Shown: positions 2,743 to 10,550 of the stretch, piece by piece
Layout: every line of letters begins with the position of its first letter
Position numbering within the stretch: the stretch's first letter is position 1
IMG/VR virus record: IMGVR_UViG_3300043037_000122
Coordinates: 1 to 30,949 of that record
DNA: 30,949 nucleotides
Source: a virus
Reading direction: 5' to 3' (one strand)
Notes under the pieces: model-generated
Seen by the model: only the letters and a program-made list of their open reading frames with translations
What the model was told of the DNA's origin: nothing
Database searches by the model: none
Translations under genes and position numbers: made by a program

Positions 2743-3897
2743 TTAAATTGCATTGACAACGTCAGCTGTCACTTTGGTTTCGCCGATGTGCGCTGCCATG
2801 TTGATTGCCGCAACCAGTGAATTGTTGACGGCCAGCGGATAGACAAGTGAGACGGCTTGGCCGGATGAGCTGCGTGGTCCAGTTAGACGAGCAGCCAGAG
2901 CTTCCAACGCGCCGGGGGCAATAACTTTGTCCATGTTAACCCCTACTCGTTGAAATTTATGAGCTACATAGTTGGGTAGATCGTTGCCAAGCGGGTCAAT
3001 ATGAATAATTTCGCACCGCTGGACAACTTCACGTACAGAGCTGTCGGCTTCCCCTAGTTTGGTTTGTAACTCTGTTTGGCCAATCAATATGATGGAAAGA
3101 AGCTTGTTAAAGCCATCCTCAAGCTCCATGAACCGCTTAAGATGCTTGAGAGTGGGATGAGAGAGGCTGTGCGCTTCTTCAATGACCATGCAATGGCGAT
3201 AACCTGCGCGGGAACTATCGCGTAACACGGTGTGCACTTGGCGGAAGCGTGCCTCTGGACTGCTAAGGCATTTTGCATGCGGGGCCACCGTGTACAGAAT
3301 AGATTCTGCTAAGTGAATTGCCTTTAATGTTTTCCCTTTCTGGTCGTTATCCTCCATCGCCAGCACATAAGGTTCTATCATTATAATAGGCAAGCTTTCC
3401 GATTCTATACGGTGCGCTAAATCCTTCCTCAGAGTGCTCTTGCCACTGCCAGATTCACCAATTACTGCTAGCAGGCCACCATGGCGAGCTGTGCTGAGCA
3501 TCGCTTCGCGCACATACCGGTAATCAGCGGACAACCATATGTCATCAGGTCCAGACAGATCATCGTAAAAGGGGGATCGGGGTAAGCCAAACTGGCGCTT
3601 GGCTTGGGGACTGAGAACCTGCTTGCGCATCAACATAATGGTCTCCTCCATAGTATTGTTTTTAATGGGCTGACCCAACTTTACTTTTTCATTTAAAGCT
3701 GCAACTACAGCTGCCTTACGAACTCCGTTATCTATCAAAAAAGCTTGTAATTTACTCTTTACTGCTTCTGGATCACGCCGAGGCCATTCGCCTTGAGTGA
3801 CAATGATTGAAAGAGCCGCAGGACTAATACCAATAGCGTCAGCAACAGACCTTTGTGGTCGGCCTAAGCCTTCCAGTATTTTTTTTAATCTGGGCAT
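2743..3897 (-). CDS. MuB-type transposition AAA+ ATPase
   Basis: A 384-aa ATPase acting as target-DNA binding and activating partner of the MuA-type transposase. An N-terminal Cro-like helix-turn-helix covers about residues 13-36 (RSVADAIGISPAALSIIV), the Walker A motif GESGSGKST is at 147-155, and the Walker B block CMVIEEAH is at 236-243, followed by a sensor-like LIGQTEL at 271-277. In Mu, MuB polymerises on DNA and recruits the transpososome to target sites away from the phage ends. Its ATG overlaps the transposase stop (TAATG), so the two are translationally coupled. The sequence resembles the TniB/ExeA-like AAA group more than Mu B itself. GC looks lower here than in the late genes. Confidence 0.9.
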   Translation of the reverse strand: MPRLKKILEGLGRPQRSVADAIGISPAALSIIVTQGEWPRRDPEAVKSKLQAFLIDNGVRKAAVVAALNEKVKLGQPIKNNTMEETIMLMRKQVLSPQAKRQFGLPRSPFYDDLSGPDDIWLSADYRYVREAMLSTARHGGLLAVIGESGSGKSTLRKDLAHRIESESLPIIMIEPYVLAMEDNDQKGKTLKAIHLAESILYTVAPHAKCLSSPEARFRQVHTVLRDSSRAGYRHCMVIEEAHSLSHPTLKHLKRFMELEDGFNKLLSIILIGQTELQTKLGEADSSVREVVQRCEIIHIDPLGNDLPNYVAHKFQRVGVNMDKVIAPGALEALAARLTGPRSSSGQAVSLVYPLAVNNSLVAAINMAAHIGETKVTADVVNAI

Positions 3898-5663
3898 TAC
3901 ATACCTCCTACGGCAACGAGCCGTAACGGAGTGACAGCCGGTATTTCTTTGGGGGTTGAGAAATGAGCTACAATTTCGTTAATGGAGTCATGTGGAACTC
4001 CATCTGGATAGTGCTGGCGAAGCCACTCCATTGCGTCTGTATTCCATTTATCGCCTACACGAGAGCGTAGCAGTTTGGCGGCTTCGACATGTCCGAGTGG
4101 TGCGACCTCCCGCTGCGGAGCTTCTATTTCCAACGTTGTGCCACGACGAGGGATGTACGTGGGGGCAATCTTCGTGTCAGCCAACATGTCCAGATGCTGG
4201 TAAGCGGCCCTACGCTTGCTTGCAGCTTTGACTGCGTCGGCCAAAGAATCTGTTCCGTAGGCTTCTCGTTGAATATTTTTAATCAGGGAATCTGTGCGGG
4301 TGTCCGGTAAGGATGTGTATCCCGCACCTATTACCTGCGCATCCTTCCGGAAACCTGCAGCGTCCCGAACAACAGGCTCTACAGTCGTCACCACTTCGCT
4401 GCCATCAGGCTGTGTTAGAATGACGTCTACAGCTGGAGCGCGGTATGGATTGACTACTACTCGTATTATTTGGCTTACAGAAATCCCTGAAATGTAACGT
4501 AGATCATAACTATGTTGCCCATACCCTTTGATGGAGTGGGTAATTGTCATACGAGGGCTAACCTTAACCTCGCGCGGTTCCGTCGCCACGAGGTTGCGTA
4601 ACATTTCTTCAGATGGAGCGGTTCTCAGCTGCTCCTGCGTTATGGTCATCCATGCCGAGTTGCGGCTACGCCCATGTCGCCCATGAATAGCGTTGGCATT
4701 CCAATGGATTCGCCACTTGTCAGCCGCCGTGTTCAATTGCGACACATCGGCAATCTGCATGCAGGCCAACCGCCCTTCGAACTGCGTTTCGATCAGGTTT
4801 TGCGCCTGTTCACACTGGCCCTTTGCACGTGGATTACCTGCCATATGGGTCAGGTGAGTAATCCCCAACGCCTTAAGCCAGCGCTCGACCAGTGCAGAAC
4901 AGTTACCAGCGCCTTTGTCGGTCAGCAGGTATGCAGGTACGCCATGCATGGGGTCATCGTGCCCGCGCTTGATCATGGCTCGGATCAAGGTGTCCAGAAC
5001 GGACATGGCATCTTCAGCACCGAGCACATAATGGAAGAAAATGGCCCCGCTGTAATGGTCGGTTACAACAAGACGCCATACCCGATCCCGCTCAGCCCGC
5101 GCCAGATTTGCAGGTTTGTTCTTGTAGAACTTAGCCTCATCCATCACCCGAACTTGTCCACGTGGCAGGTAAAACAGCACGCACAGCGAGGCATCCAGCT
5201 GCCAAACGTGGTTAGGGTGCAGGCTACGCAGCTCCTGTGCGGGGTTGCCGTGCCCCAACTGATCTGGGTGACAACCGTGAACGCGCATAGCGCGAGCCAC
5301 CGTTGCGGGGCTGGGCATCCTGATCTCGCCAGTGTGAGGGTTGGTGACACCATATCCATTACCAGCAAGCACGTCGCAGGCTACGGAGATGGGCATAGTC
5401 CGCTTACCATTGGCTCTGGTGGCCACTTTGACTAACCCCGCGGCCGCCCGGGCGAGGTCCTCTGTCACAGAGATTCGACCTTTATCCGTCCGGGGCTTCC
5501 GGCCGCTTGACCACCCGACCTTCCGCAGCTGACGATATACGGTCTGTATACTGCAGCGCAGCGTCTGGCTGGCCGCACCAATCAAAGCGCCACGCTCCGA
5601 GGCAGGCGCTGCATTCAGCCGGGCCTTCAGGTCCATAAGGTATTCCACACGCGGCGCATCCAT
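3897..5663 (-). CDS. MuA-type DDE transposase
   Basis: A 588-aa transposase with a retroviral-integrase-fold core. The catalytic triad can be read as D157 (in WQLDASL), D249 (in LLTDKGAG) and E285 (in KGQCEQAQ), with 35 residues between the last two, a DD(35)E pattern. N-terminal helix-turn-helix segments (about residues 25-60) should bind the phage ends, and the region after about 350 matches the Mu-transposase C-terminal beta-barrel position. It catalyses strand transfer for lysogenic integration and replicative transposition. GGGAGG precedes the ATG. It follows the coiled-coil early gene by 9 bp and overlaps the ATPase gene by one base. Length is close to the 600-660 aa usual for MuA relatives. 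Confidence 0.93.
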   Translation of the reverse strand: MDAPRVEYLMDLKARLNAAPASERGALIGAASQTLRCSIQTVYRQLRKVGWSSGRKPRTDKGRISVTEDLARAAAGLVKVATRANGKRTMPISVACDVLAGNGYGVTNPHTGEIRMPSPATVARAMRVHGCHPDQLGHGNPAQELRSLHPNHVWQLDASLCVLFYLPRGQVRVMDEAKFYKNKPANLARAERDRVWRLVVTDHYSGAIFFHYVLGAEDAMSVLDTLIRAMIKRGHDDPMHGVPAYLLTDKGAGNCSALVERWLKALGITHLTHMAGNPRAKGQCEQAQNLIETQFEGRLACMQIADVSQLNTAADKWRIHWNANAIHGRHGRSRNSAWMTITQEQLRTAPSEEMLRNLVATEPREVKVSPRMTITHSIKGYGQHSYDLRYISGISVSQIIRVVVNPYRAPAVDVILTQPDGSEVVTTVEPVVRDAAGFRKDAQVIGAGYTSLPDTRTDSLIKNIQREAYGTDSLADAVKAASKRRAAYQHLDMLADTKIAPTYIPRRGTTLEIEAPQREVAPLGHVEAAKLLRSRVGDKWNTDAMEWLRQHYPDGVPHDSINEIVAHFSTPKEIPAVTPLRLVAVGGM

Positions 5664-5672
5664 AGTGCCTCC

Positions 5673-6758
5673 CTAGTCAACTGCGATTTCTGCGGCCCTG
5701 TCGCCTCTTTTGCCGTCTACATCTCCCATCCAGTCGGGGTAGATAATCTGGCGAAAATCAACGTCGATGCCGTTTTCATGCAGCATCTCGTTCAACCGTA
5801 CGCAAGTATGACTCCACGCTTCGTGTACATAACGGGCTGTGGGCACGCTGGCACCGTCAGGGTTCATTAATACTCCGTTAGAAACCGCAAAGGCATGTAC
5901 GGCAGACCCAACCAGCTCAAGCAGCGCAGCATCCAGCTTTTTGCGAGCATCAGCCTCGCGCTCTGCTTCCAGCAGTATTCGTTTATCAGGCGGCAAAGTT
6001 TTGATTTTCGTCAGTTCAGTCTGTGCTTCATCCAGCTTGCGGCCTTTGTCTTCCAATACCTTGTCACGAGCGGCAAGGTCCGCAGCGAGGTCTTCCTTTT
6101 CTTTACGGATGGCAGCATTTCTGGCGGCAAGGTCTTCCAGAAGGTCCTTCAGGGCCTCGGGGTCATTGGAACGAACCGCTTCGCCTTCAATAACCAGCTG
6201 TCGGGTATCTTCCGGCAAGGCCCTCAGCTGCCGGAGCTGGCGGTAGCCAAGACCAAGCCGTTGCGAGGCTTCCAGAAATTCTTCGCCAAACATGGCAAGG
6301 TTTTGAAGGTCTTCCTTCGCCTTGGAGAGGCTGATGCCAAGAACCCCGCATACATCTTCAAAAGTAGTCATCTCCACCAGTTCGCCCTTGGCGTTCAGGG
6401 CCTGCTGCCCCTTGTAGGCTTTACTCTCCTTGAGTTCGGCAAGCAGCTTGAGCTTGGCGATGTTGGAAAACTGTTCCATGAAGTAGAAAGCGCGAAGCTG
6501 GCCAAGAGATTCTGATGAATGCACCTGTTGCGCAGTAACCGCTCCGGTCAGGGCCGTTGCCATCTGCCGGGTGGTTTCCACGGTAACGGCTGCGCCGGGA
6601 AGATCCGGCAACGGTTCCGGCATGCTGGAAACGGTGGAGGGGCGGCCACGGCCCGTGGAGGCGCTCTCCGCATCCTGATATATTTCTGCTAACGGCTTGC
6701 CAGTCGGAGCGGCAGTGTTGAGGGCATTAATCATGTTGGTGGTATTTGTTTCAGGCAT
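5673..6758 (-). CDS. Early coiled-coil protein, function unknown
   Basis: A 361-aa protein that I do not recognise by name. Residues from about 75 onward (GQLRAFYFMEQFSNIAKLK) form a helical domain with a possible helix-turn-helix (TFEDVCGVLGISLSKAKEDL). A long charged stretch of heptad character follows (LLEDLAARNAAIRKEKEDL to DEAQTELTKIKTLP), probably a coiled coil, then a compact C-terminal segment. I chose the ATG at 6758 because AAGGAG sits 8 nt upstream. A start at 6845 that overlaps the preceding stop as ATGA is the alternative and would add 29 residues. Position directly before the transposase in the operon suggests a replication or regulatory accessory role; this is inference. Confidence 0.75.
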   Translation of the reverse strand: MPETNTTNMINALNTAAPTGKPLAEIYQDAESASTGRGRPSTVSSMPEPLPDLPGAAVTVETTRQMATALTGAVTAQQVHSSESLGQLRAFYFMEQFSNIAKLKLLAELKESKAYKGQQALNAKGELVEMTTFEDVCGVLGISLSKAKEDLQNLAMFGEEFLEASQRLGLGYRQLRQLRALPEDTRQLVIEGEAVRSNDPEALKDLLEDLAARNAAIRKEKEDLAADLAARDKVLEDKGRKLDEAQTELTKIKTLPPDKRILLEAEREADARKKLDAALLELVGSAVHAFAVSNGVLMNPDGASVPTARYVHEAWSHTCVRLNEMLHENGIDVDFRQIIYPDWMGDVDGKRGDRAAEIAVD

Positions 6759-9269: not shown

Positions 9270-9287
9270 TTCCCAAAAAATTGGGAA
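9270..9287. promoter_or_regulatory. Operator 1 in the early/repressor divergent region
   Basis: An 18-bp inverted repeat, TTCCCAAAAAATTGGGAA, of form WTCCC-N8-GGGAW. On the minus strand a TTGACT box (complement 9290-9295) lies immediately upstream of it, so the site covers the spacer and -10 region of a plausible leftward early promoter. No canonical -10 hexamer is evident at 17 bp spacing. The likely ligand is the XRE repressor encoded next door. Confidence 0.65.
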
Positions 9288-9294
9288 CCAGTCA

Positions 9295-9312
9295 ATCCCT
9301 AAAAGCTGGGAT
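9295..9312. promoter_or_regulatory. Operator 2 and candidate repressor promoter
   Basis: A second 18-bp site, ATCCCTAAAAGCTGGGAT, has the same WTCCC-N8-GGGAW form, 25 bp centre to centre from operator 1. Its right end abuts TATGGT (9312-9317), a -10-like hexamer that would start transcription at about the repressor GTG. Binding here could control both directions: it overlaps the leftward TTGACT box by one base and borders the rightward -10. Confidence 0.6.
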
Positions 9313-9323
9313 ATGGTATTTTT

Positions 9324-9689
9324 GTGCCCAAATCTTTAGGCGAAAGAATTAAGGTGCTCCGAGGCGATGTCCCCCAGGCTGAGTTCGCGAAGAAGTATGG
9401 ACTCAGCAAAAACACTCTGTGGAGTTACGAAAATGGGACGACAGACCCGAAGACATCTTTTTTAGTTCAGCTAGTTACTGACTTTGGTGTCTCTGCTGAC
9501 TGGCTTTTGTTTGGCGTAGGCGACCCTCCCAAGCCGGAGCTGGACGCCCGCGAAGCGATTCTGGTGGATCACTTCCGGCACTGTGATGAGCGGGGTAAAG
9601 ACGCTATGATCACGGCGGGGTCTGCGCTGGCGCAACAGACAAGGGGCGGGAAAAACGTAGATTGTGATGACGACCAAAAGGCTGTGTAA
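9324..9689 (+). CDS. XRE-family lysogeny repressor
   Basis: A 121-aa protein with an N-terminal Cro/CI helix-turn-helix at about residues 5-60 (LGERIKVLRGDVPQAEFAKKYGLSKNTLWSYENG), followed by a short segment (SADWLLFGVGDPP) typical of small phage repressors, and a C-terminal helix (EAILVDHFRHCDERGKDAMITAGSALA). No peptidase-type LexA/CI C-terminal domain is present, so classical self-cleavage is not expected. Transcribed divergently from the early operon, it likely represses it through the two operators at 9270-9312. The start is GTG; no Shine-Dalgarno is visible, and a -10-like hexamer ends 6 nt before it, so the message may be leaderless. Family is firm; repressor role is inferred from position. 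Confidence 0.82.
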   Translation: MPKSLGERIKVLRGDVPQAEFAKKYGLSKNTLWSYENGTTDPKTSFLVQLVTDFGVSADWLLFGVGDPPKPELDAREAILVDHFRHCDERGKDAMITAGSALAQQTRGGKNVDCDDDQKAV

Positions 9690-9713
9690 TGGTGGAAGGA
9701 CAGGCTAGGAAAT

Positions 9714-9804
9714 GTCCGACGGTCGGACTTTTTTGCTGGACATTATTTTTTTAATGTCCTGAAATAATAAACGTTCGTTTTTTTACATGTCCGACGTGTC
9801 GGAC
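9714..9804 (+). promoter_or_regulatory. Regulatory cassette A: paired CCGAC dyads flanking a promoter-like region
   Basis: Dyad A1 (9714-9728) is GTCCGAC-G-GTCGGAC and dyad A2 (9789-9804) is GTCCGAC-GT-GTCGGAC. Their CCGAC halves are 75 bp apart. Between them are TGGACA (9737-9742) and AATAAT (9763-9768), a loose -35/-10 pair with 20 bp spacing, and an inverted repeat GGACATT-N8-AATGTCC (9738-9759). Both dyads are followed by T runs; A1 is 24 bp after the repressor stop and may double as its terminator. The next start codon (9824) is 22 nt past dyad A2. Confidence 0.6.
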
Positions 9805-9823
9805 TTTTTATAGGAGGGTTGTT

Positions 9824-9913
9824 GTGAAAATTCTATTTTTGCCGACAATTCTAATTACTACGCTACTATTAACATCTCATGTCCAGGCTGAAACAATAGA
9901 CGATCTACAGTAG
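9824..9913 (+). CDS. Small exported-peptide ORF (29 aa), possibly amber-truncated
   Basis: A GTG start with a strong GGAGG ribosome site 8 nt upstream opens a 29-codon frame that looks like a signal peptide: basic MK, a hydrophobic core ILFLPTILITTLLLTS, then a VQA cleavage site and a seven-residue tail ETIDDLQ. The stop is TAG. The same frame stays open for another 21 sense codons to a TAA at 9977-9979 (AALQGGYSGG...), so the original product may have been a 51-aa exported protein, now broken. Not matched to any family. It sits under cassette A and is AT-rich compared with the late genes. Confidence 0.45.
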   Translation: MKILFLPTILITTLLLTSHVQAETIDDLQ

Positions 9914-9958
9914 GCAGCGCTGCAGGGCGGCTACTCTGGTGGCGTCGTGGGCAAAATA

Positions 9959-10047
9959 GCCGACAGTCGGCCATTGTAACTTGTCAGATATTTTTAACGT
10001 ATTGATATAATGTACCTGTAGTTTTTTAAAGCAGCCGACGTGTCGGC
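9959..10047 (+). promoter_or_regulatory. Regulatory cassette B: paired CCGAC dyads flanking a promoter
   Basis: Dyad B1 (9959-9971) is GCCGAC-A-GTCGGC and dyad B2 (10034-10047) is GCCGAC-GT-GTCGGC. The CCGAC halves are again exactly 75 bp apart. Between them lie TTGTCA (9981-9986) and a perfect TATAAT (10006-10011) with 19 bp spacing. The start codon at 10068 is 22 nt past the GTCGG of dyad B2, the same offset as in cassette A. B1 has no T run, so termination does not explain it. Confidence 0.65.
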
Positions 10048-10067
10048 CATTTTCAAGAGGGGCACTG

Positions 10068-10550
10068 ATGAATAACAGCTGGCAGAACCCTAAAGTGCGG
10101 AAGTTTGTATGGATTGCTGCTGCATTTTTTGTAGGGGTGGTAGTACTAAGCGAAGTTGCTACCCGCTTTGCCCCCCCCAAAGAGCCTCCGGCAATGCCAC
10201 AGCTTGCAGCAAATGTTGCACCAGACGTGCAAGAACGTTTAACTCAGGCTTGGCCTAAAGTGCTAAATACATGCCCGGGCCTTGCTAAATATTATCATGA
10301 ATTACAATTTGAACGCATAGATATTGCCTTCCCCGATGCAACCGGAGCCTACCACGCAAATTTTGTTTTCAACACTCCGGATGGGAAATCCTCAATTCCC
10401 ACAGAGTTCATGGCTTTTGGCCAGACATGTTATTTTGGTGTTTCTAGCGATGGAGCAAGCCTCTTGGTGCCTAAAAGCGGATGCCAGTCCCTTTGTCTCG
10501 ACAAGGTCGTTTTGTATACAGGTAACGATTTAACGCTACCGCTGCGCTGA
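10068..10550 (+). CDS. Single-pass membrane protein, probable accessory (moron) gene
   Basis: A 160-aa protein with a short basic N-terminus (KVRK), one transmembrane segment at about residues 14-32 (VWIAAAFFVGVVVLSEVAT), a Pro-rich linker and an extracytoplasmic domain of about 120 residues with four cysteines (NTC, QTC, GCQSLC) that could form disulfides. GAGGGG precedes the ATG. It has its own TATAAT promoter in cassette B and its own terminator, separate from the late operon, and a lower GC than its late neighbours. This is the usual profile of a lysogen-expressed gene; superinfection exclusion or host-surface change is a guess, since I recognise no family. Confidence 0.72.
   Translation: MNNSWQNPKVRKFVWIAAAFFVGVVVLSEVATRFAPPKEPPAMPQLAANVAPDVQERLTQAWPKVLNTCPGLAKYYHELQFERIDIAFPDATGAYHANFVFNTPDGKSSIPTEFMAFGQTCYFGVSSDGASLLVPKSGCQSLCLDKVVLYTGNDLTLPLR

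What the first reader, a model, noticed from the sequence alone, without database searches (positions are those of the whole stretch)
9714..10070. Two regulatory cassettes with identical geometry
Two dyad pairs, CCGAC-N1-GTCGG then CCGAC-GT-GTCGG, occur at 9716/9791 and 9960/10035. Each pair is exactly 75 bp apart, each flanks promoter-like hexamers (TGGACA/AATAAT; TTGTCA/TATAAT), and each start codon lies 108 bp from the first CCGAC and 22 nt past the second dyad. The outer arm base differs (GTCC versus GCC) and is kept symmetrical, as if the dyads changed while pairing was preserved. 75 bp is close to seven helical turns, so looping repression around the promoter is a plausible model. RNA hairpins are an alternative. 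Both genes behind them encode exported or membrane products, so this may be a regulon of lysogen-expressed genes.
Basis: partly seen in the sequence, partly recalled or inferred. Interest (0 to 1): 0.75.

Follow-up and report, generated by a model that had tools for sequence, protein, structure and literature searches.

The report
Paired palindromes matched to phage DNA-binding protein
In a family of jumping (Mu-like) bacterial viruses, two identical DNA palindromes held a fixed distance apart change in step with the DNA-reading helix of one uncharacterised viral protein, which suggests a new lock-and-key DNA site of these viruses; its function is not yet tested, but it may be a split version of phage Mu's transposition enhancer.

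Summary
In detail: two pairs of palindromes at 9716/9791 and 9960/10035, with identical geometry (0.10 dyads expected by chance, 4 found). The window is a Mu-like phage with a B3-like layout. The same element occurs in at least 13 other Desulfovibrionaceae (pro)phages, either between the c repressor and the exported-protein/lysis genes or inside the c gene. It consists of two palindromes with centres 73-78 bp apart and an IHF-like site midway (20 of 20 elements). The palindrome sequence differs between phages, stays base-paired, nearly always matches between the two dyads of one element, and tracks the recognition helix of one early protein encoded just upstream of transposase A (window 5673-6758, phrog_4623, unknown function). 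In a near-isogenic prophage pair, four of that protein's six differences lie in its HTH. In Pseudomonas B3-like phages the pair lies inside this protein's gene, and palindromes plus HTH diverge as one ~180 bp block. I infer that this coiled-coil protein binds the dyads. A split transposition enhancer is the most likely function (these transposases lack the MuA enhancer-binding domain); this is not shown. Promoter looping is possible but promoters are not conserved.

The parts
9714..9728 (.). element 1, dyad 1: GTCCGAC-G-GTCGGAC
   Evidence: R1 covariance-model match 9702-9816, 79.8 bits (this element was in the model)
9752..9764 (-). element 1, IHF-like centre (TAATGTCCTGAAA on +; IHF consensus WATCAANNNNTTR read on -)
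   Evidence: alignment; motif in 20/20 Desulfovibrionaceae elements versus 1.28 expected
9789..9804 (.). element 1, dyad 2: GTCCGAC-GT-GTCGGAC
9959..9971 (.). element 2, dyad 1: GCCGAC-A-GTCGGC
   Evidence: R1 match 9946-10060, 77.8 bits (this element was in the model)
9995..10007 (-). element 2, IHF-like centre (TAACGTATTGATA on +; complement TATCAATACGTTA fits WATCAANNNNTTR fully)
10034..10047 (.). element 2, dyad 2: GCCGAC-GT-GTCGGC
5673..6758 (-). CC4623: HTH plus long coiled-coil protein (phrog_4623, unknown function), inferred binder of the dyads; recognition helix SLSKAKEDLQNL
3897..5663 (-). transposase A, without the MuA enhancer-binding (I-alpha) region
9324..9689 (+). c-repressor-like HTH_3 protein, upstream of element 1
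9824..9913 (+). decayed exported-protein gene (signal peptide, TAG after 29 codons) between elements 1 and 2
10068..10550 (+). membrane-anchored protein of unknown function, conserved with the element in L002, L010 and L122

Best explanation
Each 'cassette' is one copy of a phage cis-element: two matching palindromes flanking an IHF-type bend. The phage's own early protein CC4623 (HTH plus long coiled coil, encoded immediately upstream of transposase A) binds both palindromes. IHF/HU bends the DNA so that the two bound dimers come together, and the coiled coils would cross-link them. Shown here by sequence: the conserved architecture, the base-pair-preserving variation, the near-identity of the two palindromes within an element, and the co-variation of palindrome with the CC4623 recognition helix. 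Inferred: physical binding, IHF binding, looping. The most likely role (inferred, about 0.4 on its own) is a split transposition enhancer / synapsis site, the counterpart of Mu's operator-IHF-operator enhancer, with the enhancer-binding function carried by CC4623 because these transposases lack the MuA I-alpha region. Phage-specific palindromes would stop co-resident prophages from cross-talking.
For: Element conserved in other Mu-like phages. Two-sided base-pair changes: 29 cells versus 10.6 shuffled, 0/500. IHF-like motif centred in 20/20. Near-isogenic prophages G103/G059: TnpA, TnpB, IclR, ner, Mor, GemA 98-100% identical; palindrome GACCGAC versus GGGCGAC; CC4623 has six differences, four of them in the HTH, SKTKINEDLQ versus SRRKIDEDLQ. 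All four GCGAC phages of the test set have Arg at helix position 3, none of the 14 others (Fisher p 0.0003; partial Mantel r 0.40, p 0.009). Found after the test: L251 (GGCAAC) and L252 (TGCGAC) also have Arg there. Pseudomonas B3-like phages: four palindrome types, 76.0 bp apart, each with its own helix; differences largely confined to a ~180 bp block with both palindromes and the HTH. MuA carries HTH_Tnp_Mu_1; window, B3 and L204 transposases do not and start at phrog_310 position 129-140. MuA I-alpha binds the Mu enhancer (PMC3362531).
Against: No binding, footprint or transposition data exist. The loop between half-sites varies from 0 to 3 bp, odd for a rigid dimer. The two window elements differ in their outer arm pairs. 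No IHF-like motif in the Pseudomonas copies, and spacing is 98-99 bp in a third clade. Exceptions to the Arg rule: JBD25 (Glu with G), and L198, whose in-gene GCGAC pair goes with Gln and whose c-proximal pair is CTGAC. No AC-n-GT pair was found in or near the gene in several loci with the protein (L253, L254, L255, L256, L257). p values ignore part of the phylogeny; half-sites were taken by hand from the scans. The enhancer role rests on analogy and gene neighbourhood.
Confidence: 0.66

Rival explanations
1. Transcriptional looping or roadblock regulator: CC4623 binds the pair to silence c, the adjacent exported-protein genes, or its own gene during the lytic cycle.
For: The element lies in or just after c in many phages and inside the CC4623 gene in Pseudomonas phages, as autoregulation would need. 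Paired operators about seven turns apart suit repression loops.
Against: No conserved promoter between the dyads; element orientation relative to genes varies (L118, L123); the second copy in G261 lies among tail genes 22 kb away; location is not tied to one target gene.
Confidence: 0.3
2. RNA hairpins or intrinsic terminators (insulators) around a promoter, like the PeSL promoter-stem-loop cassettes of T4-type phages.
For: Strong hairpins with U-tracts in L015 and L002 (-14 to -20 kcal/mol); terminator-like sites at 9714 and 9789; pairing preserved.
Against: Conserved copies lie inside long open reading frames (c gene, CC4623 gene) and often lack T-runs; the two palindromes of an element match each other, which hairpins alone do not need; co-variation with a DNA-binding helix; window hairpins are weak (-7 to -10 kcal/mol).
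Confidence: 0.08
3. Centromere-like partition or DNA-organising site (as P1 parS with its IHF bend, or KorB operators), used to condense or anchor phage DNA.
For: Palindromes flanking an IHF-like bend; binder with HTH plus long coiled coil.
Against: No ParA/NTPase partner was found among the early proteins scanned; no Pfam, PDB-sequence or Foldseek match to ParB/KorB; integrated transposing phages have no clear need for partition.
Confidence: 0.12
4. The dyads bind the c repressor or another HTH protein of the phage or host.
For: c is adjacent; c differs between the near-isogenic prophages (56% identity).
Against: c proteins with near-identical recognition helices (TQRAVVNYE, TQRAVINYE) go with GTCCGAC, GGGCGAC and CTGCGAC; the window has separate TTCCC..GGGAA palindromes at the c/ner boundary; a host factor would not be expected to vary phage by phage; ner, Mor, IclR and TnpA are 99-100% identical in the near-isogenic pair.
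Confidence: 0.08

Closest known systems
Bacteriophage Mu operator/enhancer (IAS: operators with an IHF site), bound by the MuA I-alpha domain and c repressor
   Same: Operator - IHF - operator layout near the repressor in a transposing phage; needed in Mu to assemble L-E-R
   Different: Sites are long palindromes in matched pairs and phage-specific; transposase lacks I-alpha; inferred binder is a separate HTH-coiled-coil protein; location shifts between phages, even into coding sequence
P1 parS/ParB and RK2 KorB operators
   Same: Palindromic sites for a phage or plasmid HTH protein; parS has an IHF bend between binding boxes (from general knowledge, not tested here)
   Different: No ParA partner found, no sequence or fold match to ParB/KorB; two sites at fixed spacing
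PeSL promoter-stem-loop cassettes of T4-type phages (Arbiol 2010; Comeau 2014; known here only as cited in PMC4503421)
   Same: Stem-loops next to shuffling small genes
   Different: No conserved promoter; copies lie inside ORFs; co-variation with a DNA-binding helix
phrog_4623 / phrog_1748 (early gene of B3-like phages, annotated hypothetical or 'ATPase')
   Same: The inferred binder is a member (E 5e-64)
   Different: No function or DNA site described for the family in the sources searched

Membership tests
Mu-like transposition enhancer | two operators flanking an IHF site near c | tested here: met
   Desulfovibrionaceae elements: palindromes 73-78 bp apart, IHF consensus centred in 20/20; not met in Pseudomonas copies
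Mu-like transposition enhancer | bound by the N-terminal I-alpha domain of the transposase | tested here: not met
   no HTH_Tnp_Mu_1 in window, Fc02 or L204 transposases, present in MuA; alignment to phrog_310 starts at 129-140
Mu-like transposition enhancer | stimulates transposition in cis | not testable with these tools
   needs an assay
ParB/parS partition site | ParB-family binder | tested here: not met
   no Pfam ParB hit, no PDB sequence or Foldseek match
ParB/parS partition site | ParA-type NTPase partner in the operon | tested here: inconclusive
   not found among the early proteins scanned, but not every early ORF was scanned
Intrinsic terminator / PeSL cassette | GC stem followed by U-tract, conserved promoter | tested here: not met
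   U-tract absent in coding copies, no conserved promoter; some copies do look like terminators
phrog_4623 protein family (window 5673-6758) | profile match | tested here: met
   E 5.1e-64

The most novel reading that the evidence does not exclude
A previously undescribed family of phage specificity modules: an HTH-coiled-coil protein and a matched pair of palindromes flanking a bend, swapped as a unit between transposing phages, acting as a split, phage-specific transposition enhancer with incompatibility-like groups.
Probability: 0.4. Interest if true: 0.85.

Novelty: new variant of a known kind. Interest (0 to 1): 0.74.

Why it matters
If true, it gives a function to a widespread 'hypothetical' early gene of B3-like transposing phages. 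It would show that the Mu enhancer function can be split from the transposase, and it offers a natural recognition code (helix residue versus palindrome base) that can be tested directly in laboratory phages. It would also suggest how related prophages in one host avoid interfering with each other.

Tried and rejected
Host-wide terminator or uptake sequence: CCGAC..GTCGG+TTTT occurs in six host genomes only at the elements. Chance: most single-strand pattern hits in GC-rich genomes and all new viral-contig hits outside Desulfovibrio phages were chance or repeats. Invertible promoter: interior orientation and spacing give no support. In-frame mobile palindrome (like Rickettsia RPEs): the same position in related c genes argues for a conserved site, though the element may have moved between positions. 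c, ner, Mor, TnpA, TnpB, IclR, GemA as binder: argued against by the near-isogenic pair or by shared c helices. Foldseek with the full model of CC4623 gave no significant match. R1 model hits L186-L191 and the L125 pair were judged false by eye. The PeSL papers were not held.

Full report
CHECK. Geometry, start-codon distances and symmetric outer-arm change are correct. The window is a virus record: a Mu-like phage with Mu-type portal, Mor, GemA, transposase A/B and an early operon running leftwards from a ner/c boundary at about 9.3 kb. This is the B3-type arrangement, in which the early operon is inverted relative to Mu (PMC5977238).

RELATIVES. Protein and pattern searches found the same element in L002 (two copies), L010/L072 (Nitratidesulfovibrio liaohensis), L015 and L006, then in Desulfovibrionaceae genomes. 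A covariance model of 13 copies (R1) added G099, G059, G130, G116, G050, G039, G183 and G289. In six host genomes CCGAC..GTCGG followed by T4 occurs only at the elements. In viral contigs only Desulfovibrio-type phages gave true copies with the CCGAC palindrome.

ANATOMY. Alignment A4 shows two palindromes of the form AAAA-nn-CCGAC-N0..2-GTCGG-nn-TTTT, centres 74-78 bp apart. A conserved centre YAA-N4-YTGA lies midway. Read on the other strand it is the IHF consensus WATCAANNNNTTR (consensus from general knowledge); window element 2 and L118 match it fully. The motif is centred in 20 of 20 Desulfovibrionaceae copies against 1.28 expected from shuffled interiors (the pattern was chosen after seeing the alignment, and copies share ancestry). 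Outer pairs change on both sides (29 cells against 10.6 shuffled, 0/500). The pair positions next to the core are nearly always the same in dyad 1 and dyad 2 of an element, including an A/C mismatch shared by both dyads of window element 2.

PLACEMENT. The element follows c and precedes exported or membrane genes in the window, L002, L010, L015, L122 and L198. It lies in frame inside the c ORF, between the HTH and a coiled coil, in L006, L119, L120, L121, L124, L194, L195, L196 and L197. In G261 a second copy lies among tail genes of what appears to be the same prophage, 22 kb away (L123/L124). In Pseudomonas B3-like phages and a third clade (L249, L250, L252, an extra pair in L198; spacing 98-99 bp) it lies inside the gene of protein CC4623.

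BINDER. CC4623 (window 5673-6758 minus, phrog_4623) is an early protein encoded directly upstream of transposase A. Its model (mean pLDDT 72) has a long N-terminal helix, a beta hairpin, an HTH and a long coiled coil. Its recognition helix follows the palindrome. The sharpest case is a natural near-isogenic pair, prophages in G103 (L206) and G059 (L194). Six early proteins are 98-100% identical and the palindrome differs (GACCGAC versus GGGCGAC). CC4623 differs at six places, four of them in the HTH: CTAHGYSKTKINEDLQ versus CNAHGYSRRKIDEDLQ. c also differs in this pair (56%), but c proteins with near-identical recognition helices sit with three different palindromes.

Over 18 phages, helix distance predicts half-site distance after correcting for coiled-coil distance (partial Mantel r 0.40, p 0.009). 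Arg at helix position 3 is found in 4 of 4 GCGAC phages and 0 of 14 others. Two phages examined afterwards, L251 (GGCAAC) and L252 (TGCGAC), also have Arg. JBD25, and the in-gene pair of L198, do not fit the simple rule. In 14 Pseudomonas phages four palindrome types occur with four helices, and the sequence differences are concentrated in about 180 bp holding both palindromes and the HTH (58-75% identity; flanks mostly 92-100%; in the JBD25 and JBD67 comparisons the far N-terminal part also differs).

UNSUPERVISED CONTROL. A scan for two AC-N0..3-GT palindromes 72-80 bp apart returned only the elements in the phage loci (scores 19-24). Three of 170 shuffles had any pair, with a maximum of 17. 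The scan missed imperfect copies (L198, L199, L200, L201) that the covariance model finds. L248 has a CTGAC-type pair seen by eye.

FUNCTION. Mu's enhancer is bound by the MuA N-terminal I-alpha domain (PMC3362531); Mu's operator/enhancer region carries an IHF site (PMC3820752). MuA has HTH_Tnp_Mu_1; the window, Fc02 and L204 transposases lack it and begin at position 129-140 of the phrog_310 profile. A separate early protein that reads an operator-bend-operator site next to the transposase gene would fill that gap. This is an inference from parts. Transcriptional looping or autoregulation is the main rival. After induction of Fc02 the whole early operon is transcribed in a burst (PMC9936078), which fits either role.

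LIMITS. No experiment was possible. Statistics treat related phages as partly independent. Half-sites for the tests were taken by hand from the scans. 

Noticed in passing
window 9270-9287 and 9295-9312: Two palindromes TTCCCAAAAAATTGGGAA and ATCCCTAAAAGCTGGGAT at the ner/c boundary: likely operators of the c repressor, distinct from the CCGAC dyads.
   Followed up: no
window 9824-9976: Open frame with signal peptide broken by TAG (9911); the frame beyond the stop resembles the start of an exported protein in L015 (38% over 26 residues, E 8e-4): a decaying lysogenic-conversion gene.
   Followed up: partly
L002 1150-1960: A thermonuclease-like exported gene is flanked by direct repeats made of the 3' end of the c gene plus the element, as if inserted by recombination between elements.
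   Followed up: no
L250 9540-10380, L252 9281-10915: CC4623 homologues with a tandemly duplicated HTH region; in L250 the in-gene palindrome pair is duplicated with it.
   Followed up: no
L119, L120, L121, L124, L194, L196 c genes: c repressors of the HTH-coiled-coil type share the coiled coil while the HTH and element differ, i.e. modular repressors.
   Followed up: partly
L073-L076 upstream of the lysozyme: A Mor-like reading frame (by eye) sits directly upstream of the GH108 lysozyme in gut Desulfovibrio prophages in which no element was found.
   Followed up: no
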